Below, in pieces: positions 1 through 48,791 of a DNA stretch of 64,000 bases. The first letter of the stretch is position 1. Each line of letters starts with the position of its first letter. The notes beneath the pieces were generated by a model. That model saw nothing but the letters and a program-made list of their open reading frames with translations, had not been told where the DNA came from and ran no database searches. The translations under genes and the position numbers were made by a program. Source of the stretch: Mytilus galloprovincialis (lineage: Eukaryota; Mollusca; Bivalvia; Mytilida; Mytilidae); assembly GCF_965363235.1 (NCBI RefSeq), contig NC_134839.1:80687410-80751409 (forward strand). Reading direction: 5' to 3'.

Positions 1-137
1 GGGGTTTTGTGTAGCTTCGGAAGCCAATACATAGTTGGGACTTTCATTGTATTTGGCTCTGCTTGTAAAGCGGTGGCTAAAAGTTTATGTTTGTTACAGA
101 TTTCGTTTTCTGAAAATGGAGTCAGTTGGAATGTTGG

Positions 138-1038
138 GACGTTACGCGCGATGTTCGTACATGTAAGCGTAACACAACGTCGCGAATATTTCGTAACGTT
201 CAAGGCAAAACGTCGACTAGAACGTTGTTTTTAAGCAAGTGCAACATTCTTGTAAGACTCCGCAAAATCGACGGGACTGTTTAACTACTTATTGAAAATT
301 GATGTATTTTACATTTTTGAAAAGTTAAGAAAAATAACATTTTAAAAAATAATAAAATTCTACCATTATACGAGCACTGATAAGCAAACAGTTGACGTAA
401 AGTTGAGATGAGTTCGTTTTTACGTCAAAAAATGGCGGTGCGACAACCTTGTAAGCCTTTGAAAAATCGCTCATAAATTACCATATATCATTTTTCAGGA
501 TATTTGTCTTTAAAGTCATAAAATTAAGCAAATTAACATTGGTGTAGTAAATACAAATACTGATCTTTTTCCATTTTAGATAAACGTTTTTGATTCTCAA
601 ATCTGGAATCCCATTTTTTTTCCCGCGTGGGACAGTTTTGCCCTTGTAGTATGGAACGCTTTTTTTTCTATGACGTCATCATAACGTCATTAAAAAATGC
701 ATAAGAGACTGCAATAACCTTTCTGTTAAGTAATGGAAAAAAACGTTTTTCAAAATATTAAATACTTTAGACGAAAATCATAGTTTAGTGGTTACAATAA
801 ATGGAATATGTTACGCGGGACCGTCTAAAAATAGTCGTTTTATTAAAATGAAGCTTGTCTCATGCAGCATAAAACATAGTTTCATTAATTATTTTTTTCA
901 TTTTTATTTTAAAAACCATTATTTTTTAAAATCCGTAATATAGCAATGAATATGATATCACACAATTATATATTTTAAGTTTGCATCTTGCCAACTACAA
1001 TGATTTTCCAATGAGGTACGAACATCGCGCGTAACGTC
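138..1038. mobile_element. 901-bp non-autonomous TIR transposon inserted in the Naiad RT
   Basis: A perfect 23-bp inverted repeat bounds this segment: 138-160 begins GACGTTACGCGCGATG, and its exact reverse complement is 1016-1038. The flanks carry a 3-bp direct repeat TGG (135-137 and 1039-1041). Removing the element plus one TGG joins the Naiad frame exactly (Asn-Ser-Pro-Thr-Phe-Gln). The interior is AT-rich with no transposase. A 3-bp target duplication occurs in PIF/Harbinger, CACTA and Zator-type elements; I cannot assign the superfamily. Confidence 0.85.
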
Positions 1039-1041
1039 TGG

Positions 1042-2616
1042 TGAATTGGTGATTTCCTTTTTCAGAACCTCAATGTAAAATTTACGTCAAACAATAATAA
1101 TATTATTAGCAGCTTTATCTGCCGGGACAAAAACAAATTCCTTGGCTAGTTCTTTTAGTTTATGTTTGATACGAGAAATAGGTTTATTGTGGTTATTGTT
1201 TATAGTAAAATGTTCTCTAAAATGTTGAATACGTATATCAACTATCTTCATTACTGAATTAAAAAAAGAGTCCAAAGATTTTTTGTCAGCTTTTTCCCGT
1301 TTTATCCATTTCATACAGTAAGTATGGAGTGAGTCGTGGATGATATTACGACACTCATTCCAATTAATAATTGACGGGGGACGATATTTAGGTCCTTTAC
1401 TGAGGAATGATTTTAACTCTCGGTCTTGAACGATGTTAAGATCTCCTGTTATAACATGGGAAATGGGTCCATAAATATATCCGGAATTACTGCAATTACA
1501 TGAAGTAGGTGTATTTTCACTGATATTAACATCTTTACACAATTGACTATAATTAAACACAAATTTCCGGGTAGATTTCTTGTAAATATAACAAATAAGA
1601 GGTAGCTCAGTATTGTCAAAATATCCAGGAATTTGTTCTTTAACAGAATGGTCGTTAAATATACCGGCAATATTTACAAAATCAAAGCCTTTATTGACAT
1701 ACTTAATTTTAATAAAATGTTTTTTATGATCTTCAGGGCGATCAATTTTGGGAAATAATTTAGAATAACAATATGCAATAATTATTTGAACAATTTCATA
1801 CTTAGGACTGCTATATGAAATTGTGTTGCAATCCTCCAAAATTTTATTTAACTTATTAACCGGTAACGAACAGAGTTTTGTTAACAGATAATGTCTGCCG
1901 TTGTTTTTTGAAATAGAAATTAGGTCCGAAATATTGGTATGATTGGCCCGAAATTTTCTTTGATTGCGATTTGTTCTACGACCGTGAGAACGTTTTTTAC
2001 GAACAGTTTTAGAAACTATATCCAAAATGTTAACGGAATTGGTTCTAGATATATTACCAATTCCCATGATATTGTCATTTAGACCGAGAGGGTAAACTGT
2101 CTGTAATTTTTTAATCCAATTTAATTCAATTATTTTCCGCGATCGTACAAACTTTGAATGCGATTCACCAGGCTGCTTATTTACTACTTCTAAAGGTTGA
2201 ACTGCTAAATATTTAAAAGGATGGTTGTGCTTCTTAAGGTGTTGGTAAATAATACTTTTGAATTTATTGGGTCTTTTAAAACGATACAGATGTTCTTGAG
2301 TGCGTTTAGATAAATATCGTCCAGTTTCTCCTACGTACTGAATACCACACCCTGGTTTGTTTCATGTGAGTAAATAAATAATACTGTTTGTTTTTCAAGT
2401 TCTATCAGTTTCAAAATTTAAAGAAAATGTGCGACCATTAAACGTGGACCTTACCGTATTGTTGGTGGAAAGACGGGGACATGTAAGTCATTTTTTGGCA
2501 TGACACTTATCGATAGAAGGGTAACCACGATTTTTATTGTTAAAAATGTTAGCGATGGTAGTATTTTTAGATAACCGATTTTGAAGATTGAGACGTGTGG
2601 ATACCCTTTGAAAAGT
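1042..2616 (-). CDS. Naiad ORF: GIY-YIG nuclease, CxC linker, RT start, with in-frame TGA codons
   Basis: A single reading frame of about 525 codons contains no TAA or TAG but four TGA codons: 2490-2488, 2397-2395, 2364-2362 and 1089-1087. Contexts are KK-TGA-LTCP, RT-TGA-KTNS, LLT-TGA-NKPGCG and IIV-TGA-RKFY. In related GIY-YIG/RT proteins these sites are normally Cys. The stretch 2361-1090 (424 codons) is fully open. Naiads in clams and spiders are reported to encode multi-selenocysteine proteins, so TGA here is plausibly selenocysteine; ordinary decay is the alternative. A SECIS element would be in the 3' UTR beyond the left edge. The frame is broken after 1039 by the transposon at 138-1038 and resumes at 137. 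Confidence 0.75.
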
Positions 2617-2967
2617 TTAGTATTTAGTAATTTTCCATTTCTAAGCTTCATAATTGTTTTGTTAGTGAATTATATAATAAAGAAGCAAAGATTGGCGTCC
2701 AGAATATGAACCAGCATACAATAATTGAAGATATATAAAATGGATAAATTTGTTCGCTAAAAATGTCAAACGCTATCAGTATTAAATAGTAGAATGGGGC
2801 TGAATATTGAAATACTACTGTTTGATAAATATTCCTAAAGTAATGAATTAGAGCAGTTCTCGCTCGGACACACACTCCATAATCTAGTATATTATAAGAG
2901 CATAAACCTGAAGCACGGGGAGGCACTCTACTGCCTCCACACGGCACTAAAGACAAACTCTGTAAAA
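2617..2967 (-). other. Unassigned stretch 5' of the Naiad frame
   Basis: Short minus-strand frames (2956-2648 and 2651-2451) overlap the Naiad start in other phases. They could be frameshifted 5' coding or pseudo-LTR sequence of the element, but I recognise no motif. Confidence 0.3.
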
Positions 2968-3415
2968 AATAAAATTGAGAATGGAAATGGGGAATGTGTC
3001 AAAGAGACAACAACCCGACCAAATAAAAAACAACAGCAGAGGGTCACCAACAGGTCTTCAATGTAGCGAGAAATTCCCGCACCCGGAGGCGTCCTTCAGC
3101 TGGCCCCTAAACAAATATATACTAGTCCAGTGATAATGAACGCCATACTAATTTCCAAATTGTACACAAGAAACTAAAATTAAAATAATACAAGACTAAC
3201 AAAGGCCAGAGGCTCCTGACTTGGGACAGGCGCAAAAATGCGGCGGGGTTAAACATGTTTGTGAGATCTCAACCCTCCCCCTATACCTCTAACCAATGTA
3301 GTAAAGTAAACGCATAACAATACGCACATTAATATATTTATTGATGTCGCAGATTTCTTAGTTTCATGACTTAAATAAGCTGCTTAAATATTGTTAATCC
3401 TTAAATTTTTTTTAT

Positions 3416-4400: not shown

Positions 4401-5044
4401 TATATGGCACTGTTGCAGGGCCATAAAAAGTTAACACTGTTAACAATATTACTTTACCGGTACAATTTGTCATATATATATCTTTTAAAGTTCTTTCATT
4501 TCATATCATACACATTATATAATCCTTTTATAAAATTAAATAAAAAGATAGGGCATACTTAGTCAAAAAGTTGCTTGATTTCATTGTACTTAACTTCTCT
4601 TGAACTGAATTTTAATGTGCGTATTGTTATGCGTTTACTTTTCTGCATTGGCTAGAAGTATAGGGGGAGGGTTGAGATATCACAAACATGTTTAACCCCG
4701 CCGCATTTTTGCGCCTGTCCCAAGTCAGAAGCCTCTGACCTTTGTTAGTCTTGTATTATTTTAACTTGTTGTTTCTTGTGTACAATTTGGAGTTGGTGTT
4801 CATTATCACTGAACCAGTATATATTTGTTTAGGGGCCAGCTGAAGGACGCCTCCAGGTGCGAGAATTTCTCGTTGCATTGAAGACCTGTTGGTGGCCTTC
4901 TGCTGTTGTCTGCTCTATGGTCGGGTTGTTGTCTCTTTGGCACATTCCCCATTTCCATTCTCAATTTTATTAACAAAAGGATTAAATATGTGAAACATCA
5001 CTGATATGTGTCAAACAGATATTGACCGAAGCAAACAAGTAAAT

Positions 5045-5717: not shown

Positions 5718-6044
5718 TCAACTGTTATAAATATTCTTCCCTGTATCAGTCATATCTAAAACATGTGAGAACTGATCACAAACTTTAGCAAAGTGTGAAC
5801 CTTCCCAGAATACTTTACCACAAGTTCCACAACAAAAGAATGTATTAACCTTATCAAACATAGGCTCAGGTATAGAGTCCAACTGAAGCAGAACATTGTT
5901 ATTTACAACAGTCATGGTTGACCAATTAATGCCATATTGGATATTGGGCTCTGTAATTGGTTTGTCACTGACTTTCCTTAACTTTATCCAATTTTCTTTA
6001 AATACATTGCATGGTACTTGAAGATAGACATTTCCATTGCATAC
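5718..6044 (-). CDS. EXD3: EXD3 last exon, Mut7-C zinc-ribbon end
   Basis: The acceptor TTTTCAG precedes GTATGCAATGG, and translation starts VCNGNVYLQV. The second half contains FCCGTCGKVFWEGSHF, the conserved C-terminal zinc-ribbon-like end of Mut7-C domains. The stop follows KNIYNS. Confidence 0.88.
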   Translation of the reverse strand, partial: VCNGNVYLQVPCNVFKENWIKLRKVSDKPITEPNIQYGINWSTMTVVNNNVLLQLDSIPEPMFDKVNTFFCCGTCGKVFWEGSHFAKVCDQFSHVLDMTDTGKNIYNS

Positions 6045-9000
6045 CTGAAAAGAAAAGTATTCATGTATCATTTCATTTTGATGAAAATATCTGTTAATTT
6101 TAAATGATTTAACTGATTTTATCCATAATGTGTTATCTTATCATCTTTTTCTCTAAAAATAAATGGCTGACCAGGTTCTCATTAAACTCATGAAAAATCT
6201 ATGTACTGTTCTGAATTGAGGTTCATAAACTTATCATTCAATCAAAATTTAGTAGCAATATATCCTTCCCACCTTTTTTTTTTAGATTTTTTTTTATCAA
6301 TTCCAATAGTTTTCTTGCCACATTTCAATTTTGAGTATTAAACAGTGGATGCTAAGGTGGTAAGGGACAACAAAATAAAATTTTATAAGGTTGCACACAT
6401 GCCTAATTTCCTGAAAGTTCAGAGGATTTAAAAATAAAATGTTTTTTTTTCATAATTTTAAGAATAGCTTTTATGCTAATTTATTGAGAGGGTGGTTCAA
6501 CATATTTTTAAAGGATGATGCCAGCAACGATTGTTAAAAAATGTATTTTACAGAATTTGTTGAATTTCTTGTCAAATGTCTTCTTTTTTTGTAATGGCGG
6601 AGAAAATGTTAAAAGGGTCATTAACAATAAGGCCTATAACTTTTAAAGTTAAGTTAAACTATAAAATCAATTTCTTCCAACATTTATTTGATCTTACATA
6701 CCTTACATCTACTAAATATGTCTTTTTCAGTGACCTTGACATTAAAATATTGTAAAACCTCTACTACTTGTTCTCTAGCAGTGGTTGTCTGTACATTGTA
6801 ACACATCTTATCTCCTACTATTCCTTGAACCTGAAAAAAAAAGATTTATCAATTGATGCACACCACATTTCACATTGTGTCTCTATATACTGTAAATTCA
6901 GAGATATTCCAAAGTTTTGATTATTGAAAATATTGCGACTGATATCTGAAACAATTGTAAGGTTGCAGATTTTTCTGAAAATCGCAAAAAGTTCATCTGT
7001 ATATTTGGTTATTTGTAAATAGTCACATCAAATGCATGCAATAATTTCTGAATTTTCATTATAAACAATGTATATGAAATAATGTTCCAGACTCCTTTTT
7101 AGCTCACCTGGCCTAAAAGGCCATGTGAGCTTTTCTCATCACTTGGCGTCCGTCGTCGTCGTCGTCTGTCGTCATTAACAATTTTTCAAACATCTTCTCC
7201 TCTGAAACTACTGAATGGATTTGAATGAAACTTAAAATGATTGTTCCTTAGATTATCCTGCACAAAGTGTTTGCTTCAATTTTTGATCCGTCAAAAAACA
7301 TGGCCGCCGTTACTTAAAATAGAACATAGGGGTCAAATGCAGTTTTTGGCTTATATCTCAAAAACGGAAGCATTTAGAGCAAATCTGACATGGGGTAAAA
7401 ATGTTCATTAGGTCAAGATCTATCAGCCCAGAAATTTTCAGATGAATCAAACAAACCATTGTTGGGTTGCTGCCACTTAATTGGTAATTTTAAGGAAATT
7501 TTGCAGTTTTTGGTCATTTTCTTGAATATTATTATAGATGAAGATAAACTGTAAACAGCAAAAATGATCAGCAAAGTAAGATCTACAAATAGGTTAATAT
7601 GACCAAAATTGTCAATTGACCCCTTAAGGGGTAAATGTCCTTTAATGACAATTTTTCACAATTTGTTCATCATATTTGCTAACTTTAAAAAATCTTCTCC
7701 TCTGAAACTACTGAATGGATTTGGATGAAACTTAGCATGATAGTTCCTTAGATTATCCTGCACAAAGTGTGTGCTTCGATTTTTGATCCGTCAAAAAACA
7801 TGGCCGCCCTTACTTTAAATAGAACATAGGGGTCAAATGCAGTTTTTGGCTTATATCTCAAAAACGAAAGCATTTAGAGCAAATCTGACTGGGGTAAAAA
7901 TGTTCATTAGGTCAAGATCAATCAGTCCTGAAATTTTCAGACGAATCAAACAAACCATTGTTGGGTTGCTGCCACTTAATTGGTAATTTTAAGGAAATTT
8001 TGCAGTTTTTGGTCATTATCTTGAATATCATTATAGATAAAGATAAACTGTAAACAGCAAAAATGATCAGCAAAGTAATATCTACAAATAGGTTAATATG
8101 ACCAAAATTGTCAATTGACCCCTTAAGGGGTAAATGTCCTGTAATGACAATTTTTCACAATTTGTTCATCATATTTGCTAACTTTAAAAAATCTTCTCCT
8201 CTGAAACTACTGAATGGATTTGGATGAAACTTAGCATGATAGTTCCTTAGATTATCCTGCACAAAGTGTGCGCTTCGATTTTTGATCCGTCAAAAAACAT
8301 GGCCGCCCTTACTTTAAATAGAACATAGGGGTCAAATGCAGTTTTTGGCTTATATCTCAAAAACGAAAGCATTTAGAGCAAATCTGACATGGGGTAAAAA
8401 TGTTCATTAGGTCAAGATCTATCAGCCCTGAAATTTTCAGACGAATCAAACAAACCATTGTTGGGTTGCTGCCACTTAATTGGTAATTTTAAGGAAATTT
8501 TGCAGTTTTTGGTCATTATCTTGAATATCATTATAGATAAAGATAAACTGTAAACAGCAAAAATGATCAGCAAAGTATATATATTTGTAATATTGAAGAA
8601 TTGTTAGCTGTACATGTTTGCCTGGCATGGTTCAATATGTTCAATAAGGCATTGTTTACCAGGTGAGCGATTCAGGCTCTTGAGAGCCTCTTGTTTAAAA
8701 CAGCATACACTGCAAGGCAGTAATATCTCAAATAAAGCTTTGACTCCATATAATTGTTGAGAGATTTGCGCAGCCGTGCTAATATAAGATGGTAATATAC
8801 AAAGATGATGTTATAAAATCATGATGACAAATATTTCTGGTAAAACTAGCCTCTGTCATTGTCAATAATTATGACAATTCTAGTTATTTGTGTTAATTAG
8901 CTCAGTGATACAGGTAAGTTTAGGACTATTGATTTAATCTAAAATCTTGAACCTCATTAGACAAATAAAACTCAATACTCTAAAAAAAACGTAGCTATGT

Positions 9001-18000: not shown

Positions 18001-21000
18001 AAATTTAATGGCATGTTATATTATGCTCACACAAAGCTTGGTAATTATGTTTAAGGATCTATATATTTAATCAGTGGAAGTTGATAAATGTTAATTCTTT
18101 TCAAAATGCATCATACTAGATAACATTCTCAAATAAAGCTTTCAACTAATTTCAGGAAGCTCAGATTTGTAGTTCCTGAGAAAAATACTAAAATGGGAAG
18201 TTTAGGGGGTCTCATGGGGGTTCTGATCCCTGATCCCGCTTACTTTTTTTGTCAGGTTCTTGTATCCCACTTACACTATGTACATAAGCAATTCTTATTT
18301 TTTTTGTAGTTTCACATTTCAGGCTTACAAAAATTGGCAATCCCGCGTCACGCCTAGACCCCAATGAGACCCACTGTATAGAGGTAAACCAGTTTAATCC
18401 CCTCTTTCTAAGAGGGGTAATAATCTAGTTCAAAATTAAATGCAGTTATTTATAATTTTTCTTTTTAATATAGTAAAAATAAATCATCTCACATGTAAAT
18501 TATTAAAAAGGATGTTCAATTTAAATCTTAATTTTAAGCTAACACACATTGGCATTTACAGAAGTTGTGAACATCAAAGAAATAGAACTTTAACCTGTAT
18601 GTCTTAACATGATGCCGTTTTACTTATCTTACAAATTATAAAAAGAATTGGATTAAATATCTTTTCTAATTGGATTATATCCCTTCTTCATCTTTCTAAA
18701 ATTGTTCATTTACAAATTTATAAATTATTAAGAAAGTAAAGTTTTAACTTGTTCACTTGTTTAAGTTTTAAGTTGACCGTAGATGGATATGGCTATTATT
18801 CTAAGGTCTTTTTTGTCACAAAGCCCTTCAATTTTTAAAAAAATTTTGTACATCCTTGGCTGTTACATATTTAACCTTGAAAGTTCCTGATCAAGGGCTA
18901 GGTAAATCCAGAAAAATGCTTTGGATGCATGAAATGCATTGTGTTGCTTAATTTATTTTCTATAAGTTATAAATGAGTATTTTTATTACAAATGATTTTT
19001 TTTCATGCAAGGTCAGTTCATTGCACTAAGAAAAACAGGATGGAAAAACTTGAACCTTCTTTCAATACATTTTTTGTCAAAAACCAAATCAGAATGTGAC
19101 ATGATTTCAAACTTTAGACTGGTTCCTAAGTGTACAAACCTTTGTAAGAGTAGACAGACAAGCCTGGTACTTTTCTTTGGTATCTATAACAGTAATATGA
19201 TCATCTGGTAGGTTTAAAGTATAATAGTGAGCAGACATTTCTGTTTCAGAATAACAGTCATCGTCCCAATTTTCTCCTTCTGCGTTTTGATCTTGTTTAT
19301 CTTCTCCTCTGAAATACCAAGAACAGCATTTGACTGAAATCATGAACTAAAATGATGTTATAAGAATAATGAAACTGGTGTCTGAGAAAATGTAAAAGTT
19401 ATACAGATTTGGGGAAAACAAAACTACCCTTAAACTGCATGCAGCTTATACTAACAGTGATCAGAAAGAAGCTATATTTACAACTGATAATGCTGTTTTT
19501 TACGGCTGCTTCTACTATATATATATGCTTTTATGTGAAAAAAATACTTGTTTTAAAAGTTCCAATAAACCATTACTTAAGACATTTTGGCAACTGGCCT
19601 TCTTCAGTTTCTTTATTTTCCTTTTTAACTACATGGTAGACATTTTATTTTCACTATCATTAAGATGTTAAAGATGTTTTCCATAACATTACCAAGGAAC
19701 TAAATCTATAACAAACTTACTCATCCATTTCCCTTCTTTTTACAGCAACCACTTCTGGAATACATTCATCAGACAACTGGAAATTTCTAGCCCATTTAAC
19801 AGCTTCCGTAAGTTCATTATAACACATTAATTGTTCTACTAACTGTTCCTTCAAATAGTCATTATCACTAACTGCATTCTGGAAAATAAAACCAGGCATA
19901 TAATAGATCACATTCATATTTGTTCACTTTCCAATAAATTCCCTATGTTACAATGCCTATGTTATCAAGTTATAGTCAGAAACGATTGGTTGATGACTAA
20001 ATTTTGTTCAAAAATTCAATCAAACTTCTGTTGTAGATCGATGGAAGTTTTTAAAATAATTGAAACAAAATCATACATAAACTGTACCCAGAGAAAATAA
20101 ATGTTTTTTGTTATAACAAACTCAAAAATAAAACAAATTGATAGCAATGTTAAAAGCAAATACATGTAAAAGTTTAAAGTGAAAAAGTTTATTTTTGATC
20201 ACTCACTACACAAATCTTTTTTCAATGTAACTATTACCTCTACTAGTTCTTCCCAACTTCCTGTACCCATCTTCCCCTACAATAAATACAAATAAATTCT
20301 ATGATCAATGATTACAGAGTAACTTAAATCCAGTTATTATCTGGATTTTTATTTTATTACAGGTTAGATATTGTAGGTATATACATATATAATATATAAT
20401 TGCCAAAACATTCTAAATATTTTATGATGTTATTTATTTCTGTTTTGACCCTTTTTTATATATGTCAATGTAAATTTTTTATCAACATAATGCATATGGT
20501 CACTGTGGTAAATTTCATGAATGCCACAAGTTATGATGTTGAATGCCTATTTTTCTATAAAAAAAAATCACAATTACATATATTAAAATACATTTCTATC
20601 AGTTGCTCTTTAACATTCTTTTACCCTGGTACAATGTACTGTTATCATGGTTATTTCTCTCAGCCTACATAAAAGAATCATCATATTACCTCTATATATC
20701 TCCTGTACAAAAGATACCTCAATACTCCTACTCCTCTGGCTTTACTTATCATATTACCTCTATATATCTCCTGTACAAAAGATAACTCAATGCTAATACT
20801 CCTCTGGCTTTATTTATCATATTACCTCTATATATCTCATGTACAAAAGATACCTCAATGCTAATACTCCTCTGGCTTTACTTATCATATTACCTCTATA
20901 TATCTCCTGTACAAAAGATACCTCAATGCTCCTACTCCTCTGGCTTTACTTATCATATTATCTCTATATATCTCCTGTACAAAAGATACCTCAATGCTCC

Positions 21001-24000
21001 TACTCCTCTGGCTTTACTTATCATATTGCCTCTATATATCCCCTGTACAAAAGATACCTCAATAATCCTATTCCTCTGGCTTTACTTATCATATTACCTC
21101 TATATATCCCCTGTACAAAAGATACCTCAATGCTAATACTCCTCTGGCTTTACTTATCATATTATCTCTATATATCTCCTGTACAAAAGATACCGCAATG
21201 CTCCTACTCCTCTGGCTTTACTTATCATATTACCTCTATATATCTCATGTACAAAAGATACCTCAATGCTCCTATTCCTCTGGTTTTACTTATCATATTA
21301 CCTCTATATATCTCCTGTACAAAAGATACCTCAATGCTAATACTCCTCTGGCTTTACTTATCATATTACCTCTATATATCTCCTGTACAAAAGATACCTC
21401 AATGCTCCTACTCCTCTGGCTTTACTTATCATATTGCCTCTATATATCCCCTGTACAAAAGATACCTCAATGCTCCTACTCCTCTGGCTTTACTTATCAT
21501 ATTGCCTCTATATATCCCCTGTACAAAAGATACCTCAATAATCCTATTCCTCTGGCTTTACTTATCATATTACCTCTATATATCCCCTGTACAAAAGATA
21601 CCTCAATGCTCCTTCTCCTCTGGCTTTACTTATCATATTACCTCTATATATCTCCTGTACAAAAGATACCTCAATGCTCCTACTCCTCTGGCTTTACTTA
21701 TCATATTGCCTCTATATATCCCCTGTACAAAAGATACCTCAATAATCCTATTCCTCTGGCTTTACTTATCATATTACCTCTATATATCCCCTGTACAAAA
21801 GATACCTCAATGCTAATACTCCTCTGGCTTTACTTATCATATTATCTCTATATATCTCCTGTACAAAAGATACCTCAATGCTCCTACTCCTCTGGCTTTA
21901 CTTATCATATTATCTCTATATATCTCCTGTACAAAAGATACCTCAATGCTCCTACTCCTCTGGCTTTACTTATCATATTACCTCTATATATCTCCTGTAC
22001 AAAAGATACCTCAATGCTAATACTCCTCTGACTTTACTTGTCATATTACCTCTATATATCTCCTGGACAAAAGATACCTCAATAATCCTATTCCTCTGGC
22101 TTTACTTATCATATTACCTCAATATATTTCATGTACAAAAGATACCTCAATGCTAATACTCCTCTGGCTTTACTTATCATATTACCTCTATATATCTCCT
22201 GTACAAAAGATACCTCAATGCTCCTACTCCTCTGACTTTACTTGTCATATTACCTCTATATATCTCCTGTACAAAAGATGCCTTAATGCTCATACTCCTC
22301 TGGCTTTACTTATCATATTACCTCTATATATCTCCTGGACAAAAGATACCTCAATAATCCTATTCCTCTGGCTTTACTTATCATATTGCCTCTATATATC
22401 CCCTGTACAAAAGATACCTCAATGCTCCTACTCCTGATGGCTTTACTTATCATATTACCTCTATATATCTCCTGTACAAAAGATACCTCAATACTCCTAT
22501 TCCTCTGGCTTTACTTATCATATTACCTCTATATATCTCCTATACAAAAGATGCCTTAATGCTCATACTCCTCTGGCTTTACTTATCATATTATCTCTAT
22601 ATATCTCCTGTACAAAAGATGCCTTAATGCTTCTACTCCTCTGGCTTTACTTATCATATTATCTCTATATATCTCCTGTACAAAAGATACCTCAATGCTC
22701 CTACTCCTCTGGCTTTACTTATCATATTACCTCTATATATCTCCTGTACAAAAGATACCTCAATAATCCTATTCCTCTGGCTTTACTTATCATATTGCCT
22801 CTATATATCCCCTGTACAAAAGATACCTCAATGCTCCTACTCCTGATGGCTTTACTTATCATATTACCTCTATATATCTCCTGGACAAAAGATACCTCAA
22901 TAATCCTATTCCTCTGGCTTTACTTATCATATTACCTCAATATATTTCATGTACAAAAGATACCTCAATGCTAATACTCCTCTGGCTTTACTTATCATAT
23001 TACCTCTATATATCTCCTGTACAAAAGATACCTCAATGCTCCTACTCCTCTGACTTTACTTGTCATATTACCTCTATATATCTCCTGGACAAAAGATACC
23101 TCAATAATCCTATTCCTCTGGCTTTACTTATCATATTGCCTCTATATATCCCCTGTACAAAAGATACCTCAATGCTCCTACTCCTGATGGCTTTACTTAT
23201 CATATTACCTCTATATATCTCCTGTACAAAAGATACCTCAATGCTAATACTCCTCTGGCTTTACTTATCATATTACCTCTATATATCTCCTGTACAAAAG
23301 ATACCTCAATGCTCCTACTCCTGATGGCTTTACTTATCATATTACCTCTATATATCTCCTGTACAAAAGATACCTCAATGCTAATACTCCTCTGGCTTTA
23401 CTTATCATATTACCTCTATATATCTCCTGTACAAAAGATACCTCAATGCTAATACTCCTCTGGCTTTACTTATCATATTACCTCTATATATCCCCTGTAC
23501 AAAAGATACCTCAATGCTCCTACTCCTGATGGCTTTACTTATCATATTACCTCTATATATCTCCTGTACAAAAGATACCTCAATGCTCCTACTCCTCTGG
23601 CTTTACTTATCATATTACCTCTATATATCTCCTGTACAAAAGATACCTCAATGCTCCTACTCCTGATGGCTTTACTTATCATATTACCTCTATATATCTC
23701 CTGTACAAAAGATACCTCAATACTCCTATTCCTCTGGTTTTACTTATCATATTACCTCTATATCTCTCCTGTACAAAAGATACCTCAATGCTAATACTCC
23801 TCTGGCTTTACTTATCATATTACCTCTATATATCTCCTGTACAAAAGATACCTCAATGCTCCTACTCCTGATGGCTTTACTTATCATATTACCTCTATAT
23901 ATCTCCTGTACAAAAGATACCTCAATACTCCTATTCCTCTGGTTTTACTTATCATATTACCTCTATATATCTCCTATACAAAAGATGCCTTAATGCTCAT

Positions 24001-27000
24001 ACTCCTCTGGCTTTACTTATCATATTATCTCTATATATCTCCTGTACAAAAGATGCCTTAATGCTCCTACTCCTCTGGCTTTACTTATCATATTATCTCT
24101 ATATATCTCCTGTACAAAAGATACCTCAATGCTCCTACTCCTCTGGCTTTACTTATCATATTACCTCTATATATCTCCTGTACAAAAGATACCTCAATAA
24201 TCCTATTCCTCTGGCTTTACTTATCATATTACCTCTATATATCTCCTGTACAAAAGATACCTCAATGCTCCTACTCCTCTGGCTTTACTTATCATATTAC
24301 CTCTATATATCTCCTGTACAAAAGATACCTCAATGCTCCTACTCCTCTGGCTTTACTTATCATATTACCTCTATATATCTCCTGTACAAAAGATACCTCA
24401 ATAATCCTATTCCTCTGGCTTTACTTATCATATTACCTCTATATATCTCCTGTACAAAAGATACCTCAATGCTCCTACTCCTGATGGCTTTACTTATCAT
24501 ATTACCTCTATATATCTCCTGTACAAAAGATACCTCAATACTCCTATTCCTCTGGCTTTACTTATCATATTACCTCTATATATCTCCTATACAAAAGATG
24601 CCTTAATGCTCATACTCCTCTGGCTTTACTTATCATATTATCTCTATATATCTCCTGTACAAAAGATGCCTTAATGCTCCTACTCCTCTGGCTTTACTTA
24701 TCATATTATCTCTATATATCTCCTGTACAAAAGATACCTCAATGCTCCTACTCCTCTGGCTTTACTTATCATATTACCTCTATATATCTCCTGTACAAAA
24801 GATACCTCAATACTCCTACTCCTCTGGCTTTACTTATCATATTACCTCTATATATCTCCTGTACAAAAGATACCTCAATGCTCCTTCTCCTCTGGCTTTA
24901 CTTATCATATTACCTCTATATATCTCCTGTACAAAAGATACCTCAATGTTCCTACTCCTCTGGCTTTACTTATCATATTACCTCTATATATCTCCTATAC
25001 AAAAGATACCTCAATGCTCCTACTCCTCTGGCTTTACTCATCATATTATCTCTATATATCTCCTGTACAAAAGATACCTCAATGCTCCTACTCCTCTGGC
25101 TTTACTTATCATATTACCTCTATATATCTCCTGTACAAAAGATACCTCAATGCTCCTACTCCTCTGGCTTTACTTATCATATTACCTCTATATATCTCCT
25201 GTACAAAAGATACCTCAATGCTAATACTCCTCTGACTTTACTTATCATATTACCTCTATATATCTCCTGTACAAAAGATACCTCAATGCTCCTACTCCTG
25301 ATGGCTTTACTTATCATATTACCTCTATATATCTCCTGTACAAAAGATACCTCAATGCTCCTACTCCTCTGGCTTTACTTATCATATTACCTCTATATAT
25401 CTCCTGTACAAAAGATGCCTTAATGCTCCTACTCCTCTGGCTTTACTTATCATATTACCTCTATATATCTCCTGTACAAAAGATACCTCAATGCTTATAC
25501 TCCTCTGACTTTACTTATCATATTACCTCTATATATCTCCTGTACAAAAGATACCTCAATGCTCCTACTCCTCTGGCTTTACTTATCATATTACCTCTAT
25601 ATATCTCCTGTACAAAAGATACCTCAATGCTCCTTCTCCTCTGGCTTTACTTATCATATTACCTCTATATATCTCCTGTACAAAAGATACCTCAATACTC
25701 CTACTCCTCTGGCTTTACTTATCATATTACCTCTATATATCTCCTGTACAAAAGATACCTCAATGCTCCTTCTCCTCTGGCTTTACTTATCATATTACCT
25801 CTATATATCTCCTGTACAAAAGATACCTCAATGCTCCTTCTCCTCTGGCTTTACTTATCATATTACCTCTATATATCTCCTGTACAAAAGATACCTCAAT
25901 GCTCCTACTCCTCTGGCTTTACTTATCATATTACCTCTATATATCCCCTGTACAAAAGATACCTCAATGCTCCTACTCCTCTGGCTTTACTTATCATATT
26001 ACCTCTATATATCTCCTGTACAAAAGATACCTCAATGCTAATACTCCTCTGGCTTTATTTATCATATTACCTCTATATATCTCCTGTACAAAAGATACCT
26101 CAATGCTCCTACTCCTCTGGCTTTACTTATGTTTGGACATAATTCTGAAAATAAGAATAACATAACCAAATATATTTGCTAGAATCAAAGAAAGTAAATA
26201 TTATATGTCTGGATGTTTTACTGTATTGGGAAATTTAATGTGTCTAATTTTCACTCTACCTATTTTACTGCAATATAACCCTACTCAAATACTGAATTGT
26301 TGTCGTAATGCATTGTAAAAGGCTATGTTATGTGAATAATAAATACTTTAGTTCTGAGATAGTCTGTTGTACAGTGTACATTTTCATTTTTCACATAAAC
26401 ATCATGTGATAACGTCAGATCTCTATGCTATGTTGTATTGGGAACAGTACAAAATTGTCTGCATGAAAACATATATCTTATGGAAAATGTCACCTTACAG
26501 TAGGTTTTTATAGTGGTGAGGAGGTCAAACTGAAACTGTGTGGTTGAAGGTAGAAATCTAATTTAATCTTAACATTTGATTCATTCCCCTGTCCTGCCTG
26601 TGTAAAAATCTAGGTATGATCATCGAAAAATGTCACATGATACAACTTTTCAAATCTCCACATTGACACATCAACTATCATTGAATTCTCCAATAATAGT
26701 GAATATTTAATTACCCCCTCATGCTTAATTTAAACAAAACTCCAAAACAACCTTATATACAATATTAATAATTAAATTTTGTAAGGTGAAAAATATATTT
26801 GTAAAATTGCAATCAACAATCTTTCATACCAATTGGTTTATAACACAGAAAATTACTTCTGAAAAGTTAACTACCTATATGTATTGACTTGTTTACAGTA
26901 GATGTCGGCAGAAGACATTATAGCGCATTGATAGGACATTTGAGCTAAAAAAATCGAACGTTTGAGCGCCAAAGAAGAACCATTTTAGGGCCATATTTTT

Positions 27001-30000
27001 AACTCATTTTAGTGAAAAGTAAAATTGTCATTGCCCATTTTGGCGAAATATTTTCAACCCATTATAATATATAATAAAGAAAAAACTTTAAAAGACTCAT
27101 GACAGCACAATATTAAACATATGATGTCCATTAAAATACAGCACTAAATGTCTAAAAGATTTAATCAAATGTTATAAGTTCGTTCTAGCCTGGAATTTAT
27201 ATCCTAGAAAACGTACCTAAGAAAACATATGTAATTGGATCTGAATATACCCCCCTGTACAATACTGTTAAATTGCATTATAAACTGTTCTATCTCTTTA
27301 TCTTGTCTAGATTTTGATGTATATTCATCTATACTTCATAATTATATATATGTTGTTGTTTGCAATTTGATAATACATGTAGTATAAAAAAACACATAAA
27401 TAGCTGGGTGTTAATAATATTACATTGCTCATTATAATAGGCATGGAACGACTCTGGACAATTATTTGTTCGCTTTGAATTAAACTGAACTTCTGACCAA
27501 AGCTTAATGAGTATTATTCCATCAGGTAAGTTTTCGCTAAAATGGGCTATCGAAAATACAGGTGAAGGGATTAATCCCATGCTAAAATGGGCTCTAATGT
27601 TGGCGCTCAAATGTCCCCTAGTAGTTCAATTTTTTTTTGTTAAAATGTCCTGCGTCTGTAGATGTAATATCTAATTTAGATACCAATCCACATTATCAAT
27701 AAACACAATGCATTAATTTCATTTATATAAAAATCCTTATCTTTATCATACATTTACTTTTATGAAAAGGAACAATATCAAACTCACTCTTGTTGAAATG
27801 TGTAGATAGGTTTGGTACAAGTGAGTTAAATACAACAATTAAATTTTGCTAATTTTGGTCTATAAATGTCATGTCATGTGATTATAAACACTACCTTGTG
27901 GGATATCATACAACTTCATCAGTCTTGCTGCAAGTTTACTAAGTGTCTTTTTATTTAATTTCTCCCTCTTAGGATTGGTTACACCACTTTTACTACAGAA
28001 AAATGAAAAATTTCGATTTTACAGAATACTTTGCTTTGAAAAAATACCACAAAATCATACTGTTATCTATATGTGATAAAACATTTATTTTTCTCTAACA
28101 ACTCGATAACAGATTGTTTAATACACCAAATAAGACGTCTGTGATCAAAGTCATACAATTGTTTTTGTCTTTAAAACTGAAATTTACATATTAATAACAA
28201 ATCGCTATTTCAGAAATTGTCGAGGGGGACATGAATATGAGAGAACATCAAAGTGGAATAAGAACAAATATCCTTATAGTAACGTACAGTACCTTATTAC
28301 ATCATCTATAACAACATCTCTATCCACCAGACTATCTAACATTTGTACAACCATTTGTTGTAGCTTGAGGTTACCAGCTGCATATTGTTCTAAAACATTT
28401 ACTTTGTCCTGTAGAACTAATGGTAAGGCTATCTAAGGAAGAAAAATGGCATGCTTAACATAACAACAAAGAATACAATGAAGATTTCTTGAAAGAACAA
28501 AGTTTAATGTCACTTTTTTACATGATCTACATTTGTACACTTTAATTTATTACCAAATGAAATACTATAGATCTATAGATAGAAATATCAATGGTAATGA
28601 TGCACACACAAAAAATAAATGATCCCATCATTATATGATTACCGTGAAATGTAAAATAATGTTAATATGTATGTACATGTACTAACCTCATCTATTGTAA
28701 AATGATCTTGAAGTCTCAATTTACCAGCAACAACAGCAGCCTGAAAAATAAAGGCATCTTCCTGGTCATCTAAACAAAAGTTAATAAAAGCATGAAAAGT
28801 ATCAGATTTTATAATACTGTGGATTCATTTATTTTCGTTGGTATCAATTTTCGTGGATTGCTGAAAACTTGCATATTTGTGGATATTTGATTTCGTGGTT
28901 TGTAGATGAAATGCGCGTCTGGCGTTTATATAAAATTTAGTCCTGGTATCTATGATGAGTTTATTTACAACCACTGGGTCGATGCCACTGCTGGTGGAGA
29001 TTTATTTCCCAGAGGGTATCACCAGCCCAGTAGTCAGGACTTTTGTGCTGACATGAATTATCATTGATATGGTTACATTTATAAATTAACTGTTTACAAA
29101 ATATTGAATTTTTGAAATACTATGGCTTTTTTACCTCAGGTATAGATTACCTTAGCTGAATTTGGCAAAACTTTTAGGAATTTTGGTCCTCAATGCTCTT
29201 CAACTTCGTACTTTATTTGGCCTTTTTAACTTTTTTGGATTAGAGTGTCACTGATGAGTCTTTTGTAGACGAAACATGCGTCTGGCGTATATACAAAATT
29301 TAGTCCTAGTATCTATGCTTAGTTTATTTGACAATCTCTGTATACTAAGTCTATTAAAAATAAGTATTTCATTGACAATTTGATTTCGTGGTTAACCTGT
29401 ACCCACGAAATCCACAAAAATTGGTATCCAATGAATAATAATGAATCCACAGTATCAAAGAAAACCTTCAGAGATTTTTGCCACAATGTAACATGTTTAT
29501 GGCCATGGGCTATCCAGAACTTAGACATGTTAAAGAACATCTAATTTAACAGGAACAGCCAGCAATCTGTTTTAAATTAATATGCTTTGCATTGTAATTA
29601 CAAAATAACTAATTTCTTAATTTTGTGTTGAAAGTAAAAAGTGATTGATGATGACCGGACTATGTAAACTGTATCATGAATACAAAAAAGGTGAAAAGAC
29701 AGGGGACACATCAGCGAAATCCAATGATCATTTCAATACACAGTGTATATCTGTAATCAAATAATAAAATTAGAGTATTGTGGATTCACTTATTTTCGTG
29801 GGTACCAATTTTCGTGGATTAAGGAAAACTTACATTTTTTGATATTTAATATCTTGGTTTTGCCAAAGTTTGCCAAAAGAAAATTTGTCATTTGTTGAAC
29901 ATTTAATTTTACCCACGAAAATTGGTATCCAATGAATAATAATGAATCCACAGTATTCTCTTTCCATTAATCTATTTATAAATTACCTCGTTATATTTCT

Positions 30001-33000
30001 TTTTCTCCAAGAAAGCTTTTATCTGTGGCAACATGTATTCATTTCCATGGTGATTCAACTGAAATGCTGTGACTGCCATAGGAAATAGTGCTGTATTATA
30101 TCGTGTGCAAGCTTCTAATGCTCTCAATTTAATATCGTCTGTTAATAATTCTTTCTGATTTACAATATGGGTATTTTTTAACCATGCTAAAAACTCCTTC
30201 ATGAAATAATAACACAGTGATGATGTTTTACCTGAGTTGTGCTCACGACAGTTTTCTATAAAATAAATAACAAGAGCATATGGATGACTTGATCTTGAAT
30301 AATATTCTCTAATTAAAGTTGAAGCCTGGGATTTGTCTGTTGGATTTTGATCAAACCATTTATTCTCCACATATTCCAATAATCTCTGCATTTCTGATCG
30401 AGATGGTTCATAGACAGACTTCATCTCCAATGTTTTTTTTAACCACTTTTCAGAAACTTTCGGATTATTTTGTTTAACTTCACTAAAATCAAATTCAGTG
30501 TTACTTCCAATAACTTTTTTGGCACTACTTTGCTTCATTTTCTTAGGATTTTTGCTACCTACATTTCCTCTTGACAAAACAGGAAATTCTTCTGTATGAG
30601 TTTTTGATGGTTTGTGATTGTCTGGTGATTCTGGTGTCCTTTCAGCAGATGTATAAGTCATTGCATTTGATGCTACAGTGTGCTGTAAATTATTATCTAC
30701 ACACATACTTGAACTTTTAAATTGACTGGAATGAGGCTGCACATGTCTCAAATTAGAAGATGGAAGTCCATAACTCTGTACTAAGGGATGTGGGCGCATT
30801 TGTTTTTGAAATGGCACTGTGTTATCACAATTCTTCTGAGTAAATGGATGTGGTCGTATCTCATCGTGTAATTCTGATTTATCTGCCCTTGATTTTTGAT
30901 TTGAAAGAGTATGGTGTGGTTCCGATGAAGAGGCTCCTTTACTTACCAGGACATCTGCAGGTGAGGATAAAATAAACCCTCCATCTTCATCACTTGATTC
31001 ATCATACATTGTAGTAGCTGTCAAAAAAAAGGAAGATACTGTGACTTTAACATGTTTAAAGGTTAGAATGGTTGCTTGGGCAGTAAAAATATAAATAATG
31101 ACCTACAAATATACTTACTAAACTAGTGGACTCCAGCTACATCTATGGAAGTCAATCCAGTTAAAAAAAAAAAAAAAGCTAAACAAACACATCTATGTAC
31201 GGGAAAAGTATTATGATGGTAAACTAGAAAATATAAATTTGGTTAATGCCATAATGGTGTGTAATCTTGATTGTTTTCATAATAGTGGCAGGGAATGGCC
31301 CCTTGCCATGCTTGCTCCATACTCAGATAGAATGCATTGAGTATTTATAATTTTTTGAAGGATGGGGGTCTGACTGAAAGGGTGGTGTTCATGAATTTTA
31401 AAGGCTTATATAAATTAAAAGGGAATTTTAATATTTAAAAGATGTGGGTCTAAATTAATGCATGTGGGGCCCTCAAACATTAACACTTTAGGCATGTTAA
31501 GGAGAACACTGAAACACTGAAGCCAATTAACATATTTGGATATTCTTCCAGTCCCCAATCCCATAAGTTTTCTAACATATTGACTTGAGTTCTCATATTT
31601 TTTTATTTAATTGGATTACAATTTTATCAATGTTCACAATCATAACCAGGCCATTTGAGTCTGTTAGAACAAAGATCACTTATCTATAATACTAAGGCCA
31701 CGGTTTTTTAATTTGATGGTTTACGGATTTTCCTCATGAAAAAGTCGGGTCGGTCGGTCGGGAAAAAAAAAGAAAAAAAATCATCTTTGAAGACAGAAAA
31801 ATATGCAAAATCAATATATATTTCACCTTTCTAACAATATGTTTGTTATGCTATTTTATCATCATTTCTTAAATTTTAGTTCGATGAAATATTATTGCTC
31901 AAATGTTATAAACATCGCATGACATTGTCTAATAAATTACAGTAAAAAAAGGGGGGTGCACGGACAAAGACGAAATTAAATCGACATATCAGAAACAAGA
32001 AAAATAAATTCGCGTAGCTCTTTATCAATTCCAGAAAACTTGGTGAATAATGATCTTCAAGCACGAAAACTGATAAAGAAAAAAATGTAAAAAACGTCGT
32101 ACGAAAATAAGTTTCAACACACGTGTTAAAAACCTAATAGACTCGTCCACTGGAAAACGAGATTATCGGGTTAATCTGTTGTCTCGCATTCCCGTTTTTT
32201 ATCCAAATGGACGATAATTTTTTTATTATCTATGAAACAAGAAAATTCCAAATGATTTGTTAATATTCAGTACTTCAACTTGATGCCTTTACCCTGTCCA
32301 CATTTGGACAAGTCTATTTCTATGAGATGATGATCTTACGGACTGATGACAAATAAGGGAAACGAACTTATTGTGTAATTGGTTTTAAAAACAAGTTTCG
32401 TTCCGCAATATTATTTGCGCAAACGACATTTCAAGGTCAGTTATAATTGATTTGTCTATTTTTAGAAACGTAAACTGGAAGTTTTATTTTTTCACAACAG
32501 AAAGTGTTCAATTTTGTTAGTGATTAATGCATTTCATTTCATAAAAAAAAATTATTTAATTATTTTTCAGGGATAATGCATTTGTTAGGGTCGGCGGGAA
32601 TAAAAAAGCATGAAAAGTCAATTTTATTTTTATTCTGGAAATCGGAAAAATCGGGTCGGCGGATCCGTAAACCAACAAATTAAAAAATCCTGGCCTAAAA
32701 TTATGAGGTCCAATTTGTCAGCCGTCATCACGTAAAAACGACGAATCAAAAAACTCAACTTTATATATAACTAATATAGTACAAAGGTGTAGATTAAAAA
32801 TTACACCACTCCAGGCCCTTTTGTTTTCCACGTAATTAATATTGCCAATAATTTAGAAGTTCCGGGTCGAGTCCGATACCGATACCAATAGTATATTCAC
32901 CTGTTACCGATAACCTTATCTGTACGTTCCGCATCTGACAGGCGCACCACCAAACGGTGTATTCAGGATTAATATGCTATATAGTATTACACTGGTCATA

Positions 33001-37961: not shown

Positions 37962-39716
37962 TAGTCCAAATAATTATGCCGTCTAGAAAGGCTATTTTTG
38001 ATTTTGCTGTTACGCATTCCTACGACGTTGAAGGAAGCCGGCGTCCAATTTTTTTTTTTTTTTCTAATCAAAAAGCCGTACTTACTTACTTACTTACTTA
38101 CTTAGTCCTTGTTATGCCTTTTGGCACATAGGGCAAAGACAAGTTGCCGCCACTCCTCTCTGTTTTCTGCTTTTTTCTCAATAGTTCCCCAGCTGTAACC
38201 TCTCTCTTTCATCTCTGTTTCTATTGTTCTACGCCATGTTGTTTTTGGTCGTCCTCTCTTCCTTTTTCCCTCTGGTGTCCATCTTAATGCAACTTTGGTC
38301 ATATCTCCTTGTGATTTTCTTATGACATGACCAAGCCATCTCCATCTTTTCTGTAGCAGAGTGGTTTCAATATCTTGGCTTTTTGTTTTCTTATGAAGAT
38401 CTTCATTAGTTATTTTGTTTGGCCAGTATATCTTCATGATTCTACGTATAGATTTTCAGTTTGGTGTTTTTTCTGATTGATGGTGTTTTCCAGATGTTTC
38501 TTAGTCTGTGAAAGGCTGATCTTGCCTTGCCAATTCTAGTTTTGATGTCCTGTTCAGCTCCACCTTCTGATGTTACAACACTACATAGGTAAGTGAAGGA
38601 CTGTACCAATTCCAGTTGTTCTCCATTTACTTTGATGTCTGGTGTATTTAGCATGTTTACTGTCATTATTTGTGTTTTCTTAGAGTTGATTTTCAAACCA
38701 ATCATTCTGGCATTCTGTTCTAATCTCTCCGTTTTTTCTTTCATTTGATTTTCAGTATGGGATACTAATGCTAGATCATCTGCATAGTCTATATCTTCTA
38801 GGTTTGAAGTGAGTGTCCACCTTATTCCGTTGTTGGTATTTGACATTGTTGATTTCATCACCCAGTCGACTGCAATGATAAACAAGAGAGATGACATCAT
38901 ACATCCTTGCCTCACTCCAGATTTTACCAAAAAACTAGTGTCTGGGTCAGAGTCTACAGTGCATTTAAAGTTGTCGTAGAAGGCTTTGATGAGTTGTATT
39001 ATTTATTCAGGAATTCCATAGCTTTTTAAGATGGTCCATAATCCCTGTCTGTGTAAGCTGTCAAAAGCCTTTTCAAAATCTACAAAGTTGATGATTATTT
39101 TTCTTTGCCATTCTGCACATTGTTCGAGGATGTTTCTGAGGACAAATATGTGGTCTATACAGCTTCGTCCTTGTCTAAAACCTGCCTGTTCTTGTCGCAG
39201 TGTTCTGTCTATAGCTGTTTTAATTCTTGAAATTAGGATTTTACAAAATACTTTACTAGGAATAGAGAGAAGAGTGATACCTCTCCAGTTATTGCAATTA
39301 GTAAGATCACCTTTCTTTGGTGTCCTTATGATGTCACCTTCGGACCAGTTGTCTGGTATGATGTTGTTCTCCCAAATTTCTTTAAAAACTGGGTAAAGGA
39401 TATCTGATGTTTGCTTAGCATCAGCTTTAAAGAGTTCAGCATTTAATTGGTCAATGCCTGGTGCCTTTCTATTCCTTAAACTTTTTAGTGCTCTCTGGAT
39501 TTCTAGTTTGGTTGGCGCATACAGATCTATATCTAATTCTAATGGTGTTTCTGTGATATCGATGCTAACTGTATTTTCTGGTTCTTTTCTATTGAGAACT
39601 TCTTGAAAATGTTCTTTCCATCTTTCCTTTTGTTCTTTTTCGGATGATAATGTGTTGTTTTGTTTGTCTTTAATTGGCAAAAAAGCCGTACTAAAACGGC
39701 ATAATTATTTGGACTA
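37962..39716. mobile_element. Small TIR MITE with 9-bp TSD, interrupted by a LINE
   Basis: The ends are TAGTCCAAATAATTATGCCG and its inverse CGGCATAATTATTTGGACTA. The flanks are GTACTTTGA at 37953-37961 and 39717-39725. Nine-base duplications point to a Mutator-like origin. Without the LINE and its duplicated target it is about 145 bp. It contains the hairpin-like AACGTTGAAGGAAG segment also present in the tandem copies downstream. Confidence 0.8.
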
Positions 39717-48700: not shown

Positions 48701-48791
48701 CAGGCACTCGTCTCAGAATTTTTTTCCCTATATACCTTTATATAACACATATAAAGGTATATAGGGGAAAAAAATCTGAGACGAGTACCTG
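48701..48791. repeat. 42-bp-arm palindrome just 3' of the receptor stop
   Basis: The left arm starts CAGGCACTCGTCTCAGA and the right arm ends TCTGAGACGAGTACCTG. The arms differ at about three positions around a ~7-nt loop. It begins 29 nt after the stop codon, so a transcript would form a long hairpin in its 3' UTR. It is probably a small palindromic MITE. Confidence 0.85.

What the first reader, a model, noticed from the sequence alone, without database searches (positions are those of the whole stretch)
1087..2616. Naiad retroelement whose only in-frame stops are four TGAs at cysteine positions
The frame from 2616 to 1042 has about 525 codons with no TAA or TAG. Its four TGAs (2490-2488, 2397-2395, 2364-2362, 1089-1087) all fall where GIY-YIG/RT relatives have Cys: a CxxC-like pair, the Cys before KTNS, the Cys before NKPGCG, and the Cys before RKFY. 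Random decay should scatter TAA, TAG and frameshifts. Published work on N-terminal-nuclease Penelope-like elements reports multi-selenocysteine Naiads in clams, so a mussel copy with the same recoding pattern is credible. It bears on whether recoding is shared across bivalves.
Basis: partly seen in the sequence, partly recalled or inferred. Interest (0 to 1): 0.85.

Follow-up and report, generated by a model that had tools for sequence, protein, structure and literature searches.

The report
Mussel retrotransposon family encoding multiple selenocysteines
A family of self-copying genes in a mussel-like genome keeps four UGA "stop" codons exactly where related proteins have cysteine and carries the RNA signal that makes ribosomes insert selenocysteine there; elements of this kind are, as recalled, already known from clams and spiders, so this is a well-supported new case rather than a new kind.

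Summary
In detail: frame 2616-1042 (-) has 525 codons, no TAA/TAG, and four TGAs (residues 43, 74, 85, 510), all at conserved Cys sites.

In the window's own genome 69 of 82 scored copies hold exactly four in-frame TGAs and no TAA/TAG. In the best 30 (window copy included) the four sites are TGA in 30, 30, 29 and 29, and in 20 of 20 copies read of a 92%-identical subfamily. dN/dS between subfamilies is about 0.10. The element runs off the window; 51 nt past its stop lies a SECIS hairpin, also present in 35 of 36 other copies whose ORF end was fetched, at scores below Rfam's cut-off. The genome has tRNA-Sec.

The window copy is dead (frameshift, TIR insertion at 138-1038, a TGA at a Trp site off-window). 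The family is a Naiad-type Penelope-like element encoding a multi-selenocysteine nuclease-RT. Selenoprotein Naiads were reported in 2021 (recalled; paper not held). Added here: five recodable Cys sites in one clade. Sec incorporation itself is inferred.

The parts
2649..2651 (-). probable original start codon (ATG), out of frame with the main frame in this copy (frameshift between 2650 and 2616)
   Evidence: relatives P0002 and P0016 begin MKLRNGK; the window reads MKLRNGK from 2651
1042..2616 (-). 525-codon frame of the Naiad protein (nuclease, CxC linker, start of RT part), stops only TGA
2488..2490 (-). TGA, residue 43 (C-x4-U-x2-C motif)
   Evidence: TGA in 30 of 30 own-genome copies and 20 of 20 subfamily-B copies read
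2395..2397 (-). TGA, residue 74 (before KTNS)
   Evidence: TGA in 30 of 30 and 20 of 20
2362..2364 (-). TGA, residue 85 (before NKPGCG)
   Evidence: TGA in 29 of 30, TGG in 1; 20 of 20
2065..2391 (-). GIY-YIG nuclease domain, residues 76-184
1492..1500 (-). CxC motif, residues 373-375; Cys here, but a fifth recoded site in relatives
   Evidence: residue 373 is TGT/TGC in 50 of 50 copies read; 36 of 151 related proteins end exactly before residue 373
1087..1089 (-). TGA, residue 510 (before RKFY)
   Evidence: TGA in 29 of 30, TGC in 1; 20 of 20; 30 of 151 related proteins end exactly at residue 509
138..1038 (.). 901-bp inserted element with perfect 23-bp terminal inverted repeats (138-160, 1016-1038) that interrupts the Naiad frame
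1..137 (-). Naiad frame resumes (RT part). It continues off the window to a TAA at L010:6152-6150, with the SECIS at L010:6098-6034 (-); window base 1 = L010:7411

Best explanation
It is one dead copy of a family of Naiad-type Penelope-like retrotransposons whose single protein (N-terminal GIY-YIG nuclease, CxC linker, C-terminal reverse transcriptase) is read through four UGA codons as selenocysteine. A SECIS hairpin 51-77 nt downstream of the real stop (TAA in this copy) recruits the host's selenocysteine machinery, which recodes all four UGAs. Shown: position and conservation of the TGAs, purifying selection on the frame around them, the SECIS and its presence in most copies tested, tRNA-Sec in the genome, and the domain order. 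Inferred: that selenocysteine is actually inserted, that the protein needs it, and that the family still moves.
For: Four TGAs at Cys columns. 69 of 82 own-genome copies have exactly four TGAs and no TAA/TAG in the matched stretch; counted by hand from the listing, 324 TGA against 9 TAA/TAG over the 82. Site-by-site codons in 50 copies. In 46 indel-free frames the only recurrent stops are the four sites, and Cys 38, 46, 90, 373 and 375 are TGY in 46 of 46. dN/dS between subfamilies A and B, stop codons left out: median 0.103 over 25 pairs. SECIS_1 downstream of this copy, 32.3 bits, E 0.0022, against no SECIS match up to E 10 in the 64-kb window; SECIS in 35 of 40 fetched 3' stretches, and 4 of the 5 misses also lack the ORF end. 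tRNA-Sec, 79.6 and 77.0 bits, cut-off 47. The 20 subfamily-B copies are 99.24-99.94% identical to each other, so recent. The TGAs are followed by CTT, AAA, AAC and CGT, so none has the TGA-CTA readthrough context (the context is recalled).
Against: No protein or translation data. All SECIS scores lie below Rfam's gathering score of 35. The hairpin's folding energy alone is only modestly unusual (z -1.88, 11 of 200 shuffles as good). The SECIS alignment shows single-side pair changes but no double compensatory change. One copy has TGG at site 85 and one has TGC at site 510; one copy (L051) has the ORF end but no SECIS. The window copy has one TGA at a Trp position. 13 of 82 copies depart from exactly four TGAs.
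Confidence: 0.93

Rival explanations
1. Decay: an ordinary Cys-type element that happened to gain TGAs in this copy.
For: This copy is indeed damaged (frameshift, TIR insertion, a TGA at a Trp site).
Against: The same four TGAs in nearly every copy read of two subfamilies, dN/dS about 0.10, chance of about 1e-5.
Confidence: 0.01
2. UGA is read through without selenium, as Cys, Trp or Arg, by leaky termination or a special tRNA.
For: Would also conserve UGA under read-through; one copy has TGG at site 85.
Against: Sites are Cys in Cys-type relatives (P0033 alone has Trp at 74); SECIS sits at a fixed place; no TGA-CTA context.
Confidence: 0.03
3. The UGAs are real stops and the element makes separate short proteins (nuclease without its zinc-finger-like region, RT alone).
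For: The TGAs cut the frame into pieces, one of 424 codons.
Against: The cuts at residues 74 and 85 would leave a 10-residue piece and split the GIY-YIG domain, whose match starts at residue 76; the SECIS would have no use; 69 of 82 copies carry no TAA/TAG anywhere in the matched frame.
Confidence: 0.03

Closest known systems
Naiad clade of N-terminal-EN Penelope-like elements (Craig, Yushenova, Rodriguez, Arkhipova 2021, Mol Biol Evol 38:5005; seen here only as a reference-list entry, PMC8557442 not held; content recalled)
   Same: N-terminal GIY-YIG, CxC linker, C-terminal RT, abundant in invertebrates; multi-selenocysteine members recalled as reported for clams and spiders
   Different: Here a mussel-like genome. 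Whether the 2021 paper lists these same sites or this family could not be checked
Cys-type Naiad-like relatives (P0026-P0033, and L001 from a Bathymodiolus symbiont MAG contig)
   Same: same domain order and motifs in P0026-P0033, 33-35% identity; L001 holds only a fragment of the RT part
   Different: Cys where the window has TGA: P0026-P0033 (P0033 has Trp at site 74), and L001 at site 510, the only one of the sites it covers. P0026-P0033 fall outside the recoded clade (three of them kept); L001 was not put in a tree
Cellular multi-Sec selenoproteins such as selenoprotein P (recalled)
   Same: several UGAs served from one mRNA 3' UTR
   Different: this is a mobile element's nuclease-RT with one SECIS found, not a transport protein

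Membership tests
Naiad (N-terminal EN+ Penelope-like element) | GIY-YIG nuclease at the N-terminus, before the RT | tested here: met
Naiad (N-terminal EN+ Penelope-like element) | CxC motif between nuclease and RT (recalled definition) | tested here: met
   C373-x-C375, both Cys in 46 of 46 frames compared
Naiad (N-terminal EN+ Penelope-like element) | RT with PLE-type motifs at the C-terminus | tested here: met
   off-window frame 97.7% identical to P0155, reads IGIPMGTNCAPL and FRYLDD; Pfam RVT_1 on relative P0029 only E 0.0031, below its cut-off
Naiad (N-terminal EN+ Penelope-like element) | placement in the Naiad clade of a PLE RT tree | not tested
   no named Naiad reference sequences on hand
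Naiad (N-terminal EN+ Penelope-like element) | pseudo-LTRs, tandem/inverted insertions | not tested
   only pieces of each copy were looked at
Naiad (N-terminal EN+ Penelope-like element) | no hammerhead ribozyme | tested here: inconclusive
   no hammerhead among Rfam matches up to E 5 in L010
Selenoprotein mRNA | in-frame UGA at Cys-aligned sites, conserved | tested here: met
Selenoprotein mRNA | SECIS in the 3' UTR | tested here: met
   Rfam SECIS_1 in this copy and in 35 of 36 others with the ORF end; scores below the gathering score
Selenoprotein mRNA | host able to decode Sec | tested here: met
   two tRNA-Sec loci over the cut-off; other Sec-machinery genes not searched
Selenoprotein mRNA | selenocysteine present in the protein | not testable with these tools
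   needs 75Se labelling or mass spectrometry

The most novel reading that the evidence does not exclude
The clade treats selenocysteine as an exchangeable part and as a gate: five Cys sites can be recoded, the CxC site flips between Cys and UGA many times while other sites hold, and three UGAs within the first 85 codons make full-length nuclease-RT, and so transposition, depend on the host's selenium supply.
Probability: 0.12. Interest if true: 0.75.

Novelty: new member of a known kind. Interest (0 to 1): 0.5.

Why it matters
Copies and SECIS together make a strong case that this mussel-like element is a multi-Sec retrotransposon family with near-identical, apparently recent copies, and give a defined UGA set, SECIS and Cys-type relatives with which to ask why a mobile element uses selenocysteine. 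The wider protein survey suggests one recoded clade, with a fifth site that turns on and off.

Tried and rejected
IMG/VR contigs gave nothing usable: one protein query matched no DNA, an alignment query and P0186 matched patterns that encode no relative, and three degenerate patterns matched nothing. No match in phage records. Genome contigs gave one locus, L001, a Cys-type fragment. No solved structure by sequence. Pfam does not recognise the window frame. A home-made SECIS pattern scan of the window found nothing strong near the element, and neither did Rfam, as expected, because the 3' end is off-window.

A search of the own genome with P0036, meant to find copies with UGA at the CxC site in this genome's DNA, did not complete; so the CxC-site switching rests on protein records alone. 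No Cys-type control for the SECIS (3' ends of Cys-type Naiads of the same genome) was run.

Literature: no paper in the held library holds all of Penelope-like + Naiad + selenocysteine, Penelope + retroelements + selenoprotein, or Penelope-like elements + selenocysteine. Searches were seen as search listings. Passages only were seen of PMC11167929, PMC10941475, PMC12477816. PMC8557442 is not held, so its content is recalled.

Full report
OBSERVATION. The minus-strand frame from 2616 to 1042 has 525 codons with four TGAs and no TAA or TAG, at the coordinates given. With TGA allowed it is the longest TAA/TAG-free run of the window. Under random point mutation about a quarter of new stops would be TGA and 5-7% TGA at one of the 16 Cys codons, so four of four at Cys has a probability of about 1e-5. 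In an alignment of 56 rows the four columns hold Cys, Trp (see below) or, rarely, a gap or another residue.

THIS COPY IS DEAD. Relatives P0002 and P0016 begin MKLRNGK, matching the ATG at 2651 in another frame, so a frameshift lies between 2650 and 2616. A 901-bp element with perfect 23-bp terminal inverted repeats sits at 138-1038. Past the window's left edge the frame goes on (L010; 97.7% identical to P0155) to a TAA at L010:6152-6150, with one TGA at a position that is Trp in P0154, P0155, P0035 and P0036.

COPIES. The window lies at C2:80687410-80751409 of an unnamed 1.385-Gb genome of 331 contigs, 14 of them chromosome-sized. A search with the frame scored 82 copies of 10,423 first-look candidates, so the copy number is a lower bound. 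69 of 82 have exactly four TGAs and no TAA/TAG in the matched stretch; my hand count over all 82 rows is 324 TGA against 9 TAA/TAG. Codons read in the best 30 (the window copy included): site 43 TGA 30; site 74 TGA 30; site 85 TGA 29, TGG 1; site 510 TGA 29, TGC 1; site 373 TGT 29, TGC 1. A second subfamily (B) stands at 92% identity, 26 rows of the 82; the 20 of them that I fetched have TGA at all four sites, no other stop, and 99.24-99.94% mutual identity. Between A and B, stop codons left out, dN/dS is 0.103 (median of 25 pairs, range 0.089-0.118; 4 of the 29 other A copies of the best 30 were left out because of indels). Selection thus acted on the frame on both sides of the TGAs.

SECIS. 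An Rfam scan of the 7.9 kb to the left found SECIS_1 at L010:6098-6034, same strand, 51 nt after the stop, 32.3 bits, E 0.0022, gathering score 35; the AUGA ... AAA ... UGAU core is visible in the alignment. The whole 64-kb window has no SECIS match up to E 10. In 601-base stretches at the expected 3' end, SECIS_1 was found (E up to 1) in 16 of 20 A copies (20 of the 29 others of the best 30, in rank order) and 19 of 20 B copies. Of the five without it, four (L041, L048, L059, L079) also lack the ORF end in the fetched stretch and one (L051) has the ORF end without SECIS; the distance from stop to SECIS is 51-57 nt in 34 of 35 and 77 in one. Fold energy alone is modest (z -1.88) and covariation is limited to one-sided changes. 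Two tRNA-Sec loci pass the cut-off; the same search rings in all 14 control genomes and passes the cut-off in 5.

WIDER RELATIVES. Three searches of 5.8 billion predicted proteins (of the third only the best 120 of 2339 hits are listed) gave a striking pattern. Of 151 proteins from the first two searches, 36 end exactly before residue 373 and 30 exactly before residue 510; the next commonest end is shared by 3. That points to conserved stops at the first Cys of CxC and at the Cys before RKFY. Proteins that read on have Trp at these sites, as expected if the gene caller read TGA as Trp (my inference; their DNA was not seen): sites 43, 74, 85 in P0002, P0016, P0056, P0067; sites 74 and 85 with Cys at 43 in P0070, P0076, P0077, P0080, P0084, P0085; site 510 in 8 of 120 C-terminal proteins, three of them with Trp at 373 too. 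Of the 120, 83 do not cover site 510, 24 have Cys there and 5 another residue; 18 start right after it, at residue 512. One Cys-type protein, P0033, has a lone Trp at 74.

On a tree of 123 rows, then of 96 after I dropped 27 long, gappy or near-duplicate rows, all rows with a stop or Trp at 373 or 510 fall in one clade (91 rows, SH-aLRT 98, in the quick tree; 89 rows, support 88/74, in the careful one), with Cys-only elements outside and one Cys/Cys member, P0188, inside. Rows of unknown state are also in that clade. Site 510 changes twice; site 373 changes 17 times among 72 labelled rows (18 in the quick tree), against 24.3 on average for shuffled labels, with 2 of 200 shuffles at 17 or fewer. 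The window family has Cys at 373 and TGA at 510, while its next relatives (P0059, P0063, P0064, P0069, P0071, P0072, P0073) stop at 373 and P0035/P0036 have Cys at 510. For rows that stop at 373 the state of 510 is mostly unknown, so a strict swap is not shown; P0181, P0185 and P0186 appear to have both.

HOST. P0047, annotated as a Mytilus edulis sulfotransferase, contains 55 residues of the family at 84% identity. Hosts of the other relatives are not named. L001, from a Bathymodiolus symbiont MAG, carries a fragment of another, Cys-type lineage, which, if it is host DNA, means that not all mytilid Naiads are recoded.

HOW IT LIKELY WORKS. One SECIS just after the stop serves four UGAs; with Sec supplied, ribosomes read through to give about 1,000 residues of nuclease-RT. 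Steps shown: sites, selection, SECIS, tRNA-Sec. Steps inferred: Sec insertion, its catalytic or structural use (U43 sits in a C-x4-U-x2-C zinc-finger-like motif, U85 in U-x4-C), and current mobility, suggested by the young B copies.

KNOWN OR NEW. Selenoprotein Naiads were reported for clams and spiders in 2021 (recalled abstract; paper not held). This is a new member of a known kind; the five-site clade and the labile CxC site may or may not be in that paper.

Noticed in passing
20680-26130: Minisatellite of about 80 copies of a 68-bp unit (94% matches); it gives long overlapping open frames that are probably not genes.
   Followed up: no
5718-6137 (-) and 29972-31102 (-): Exon-like ORFs: the first has a Mut7-C RNase domain (Pfam E 2.4e-7); the second, 376 aa, has no Pfam match. 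Possibly one Mut7/EXD3-like gene (my guess).
   Followed up: no
38442-39704 (-): Reverse transcriptase (RVT_1 on both halves; non-LTR type by my reading) split by a single TAA.
   Followed up: no
2968-3335 and 4609-4971: A 0.36-kb repeat in inverted orientation, 91% identical, upstream of the Naiad's 5' region.
   Followed up: no
2648-2998 (-): 116-aa hydrophobic ORF whose stop overlaps the element's ATG at 2651; no Pfam match.
   Followed up: no
P0047: A protein annotated as Mytilus edulis sulfotransferase 1A1-like carries a 55-residue Naiad segment at 84% identity: gene-model artefact or exonisation.
   Followed up: no
L001:7821-8453: A bacterial MAG contig (Candidatus Thiodubiliella, Bathymodiolus symbiont) holds a Naiad RT fragment, so it is probably host DNA binned with the symbiont.
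   Followed up: partly
P0189: A partial protein named after Campylobacter sp. CS_ED1 is a Naiad-type RT, probably animal contamination.
   Followed up: no
48706-48786: Stretch that scores as a miRNA-like hairpin on both strands (mir-3910, 48 and 46.7 bits), below the gathering score of 95.
   Followed up: no
7184-8582: 2.8 tandem copies of a 499-bp unit at 97% matches.
   Followed up: no
L022, L024, L029 and others: A few family copies carry a private TAA, TAG or extra TGA besides the four: the expected look of real decay, useful as a contrast.
   Followed up: partly
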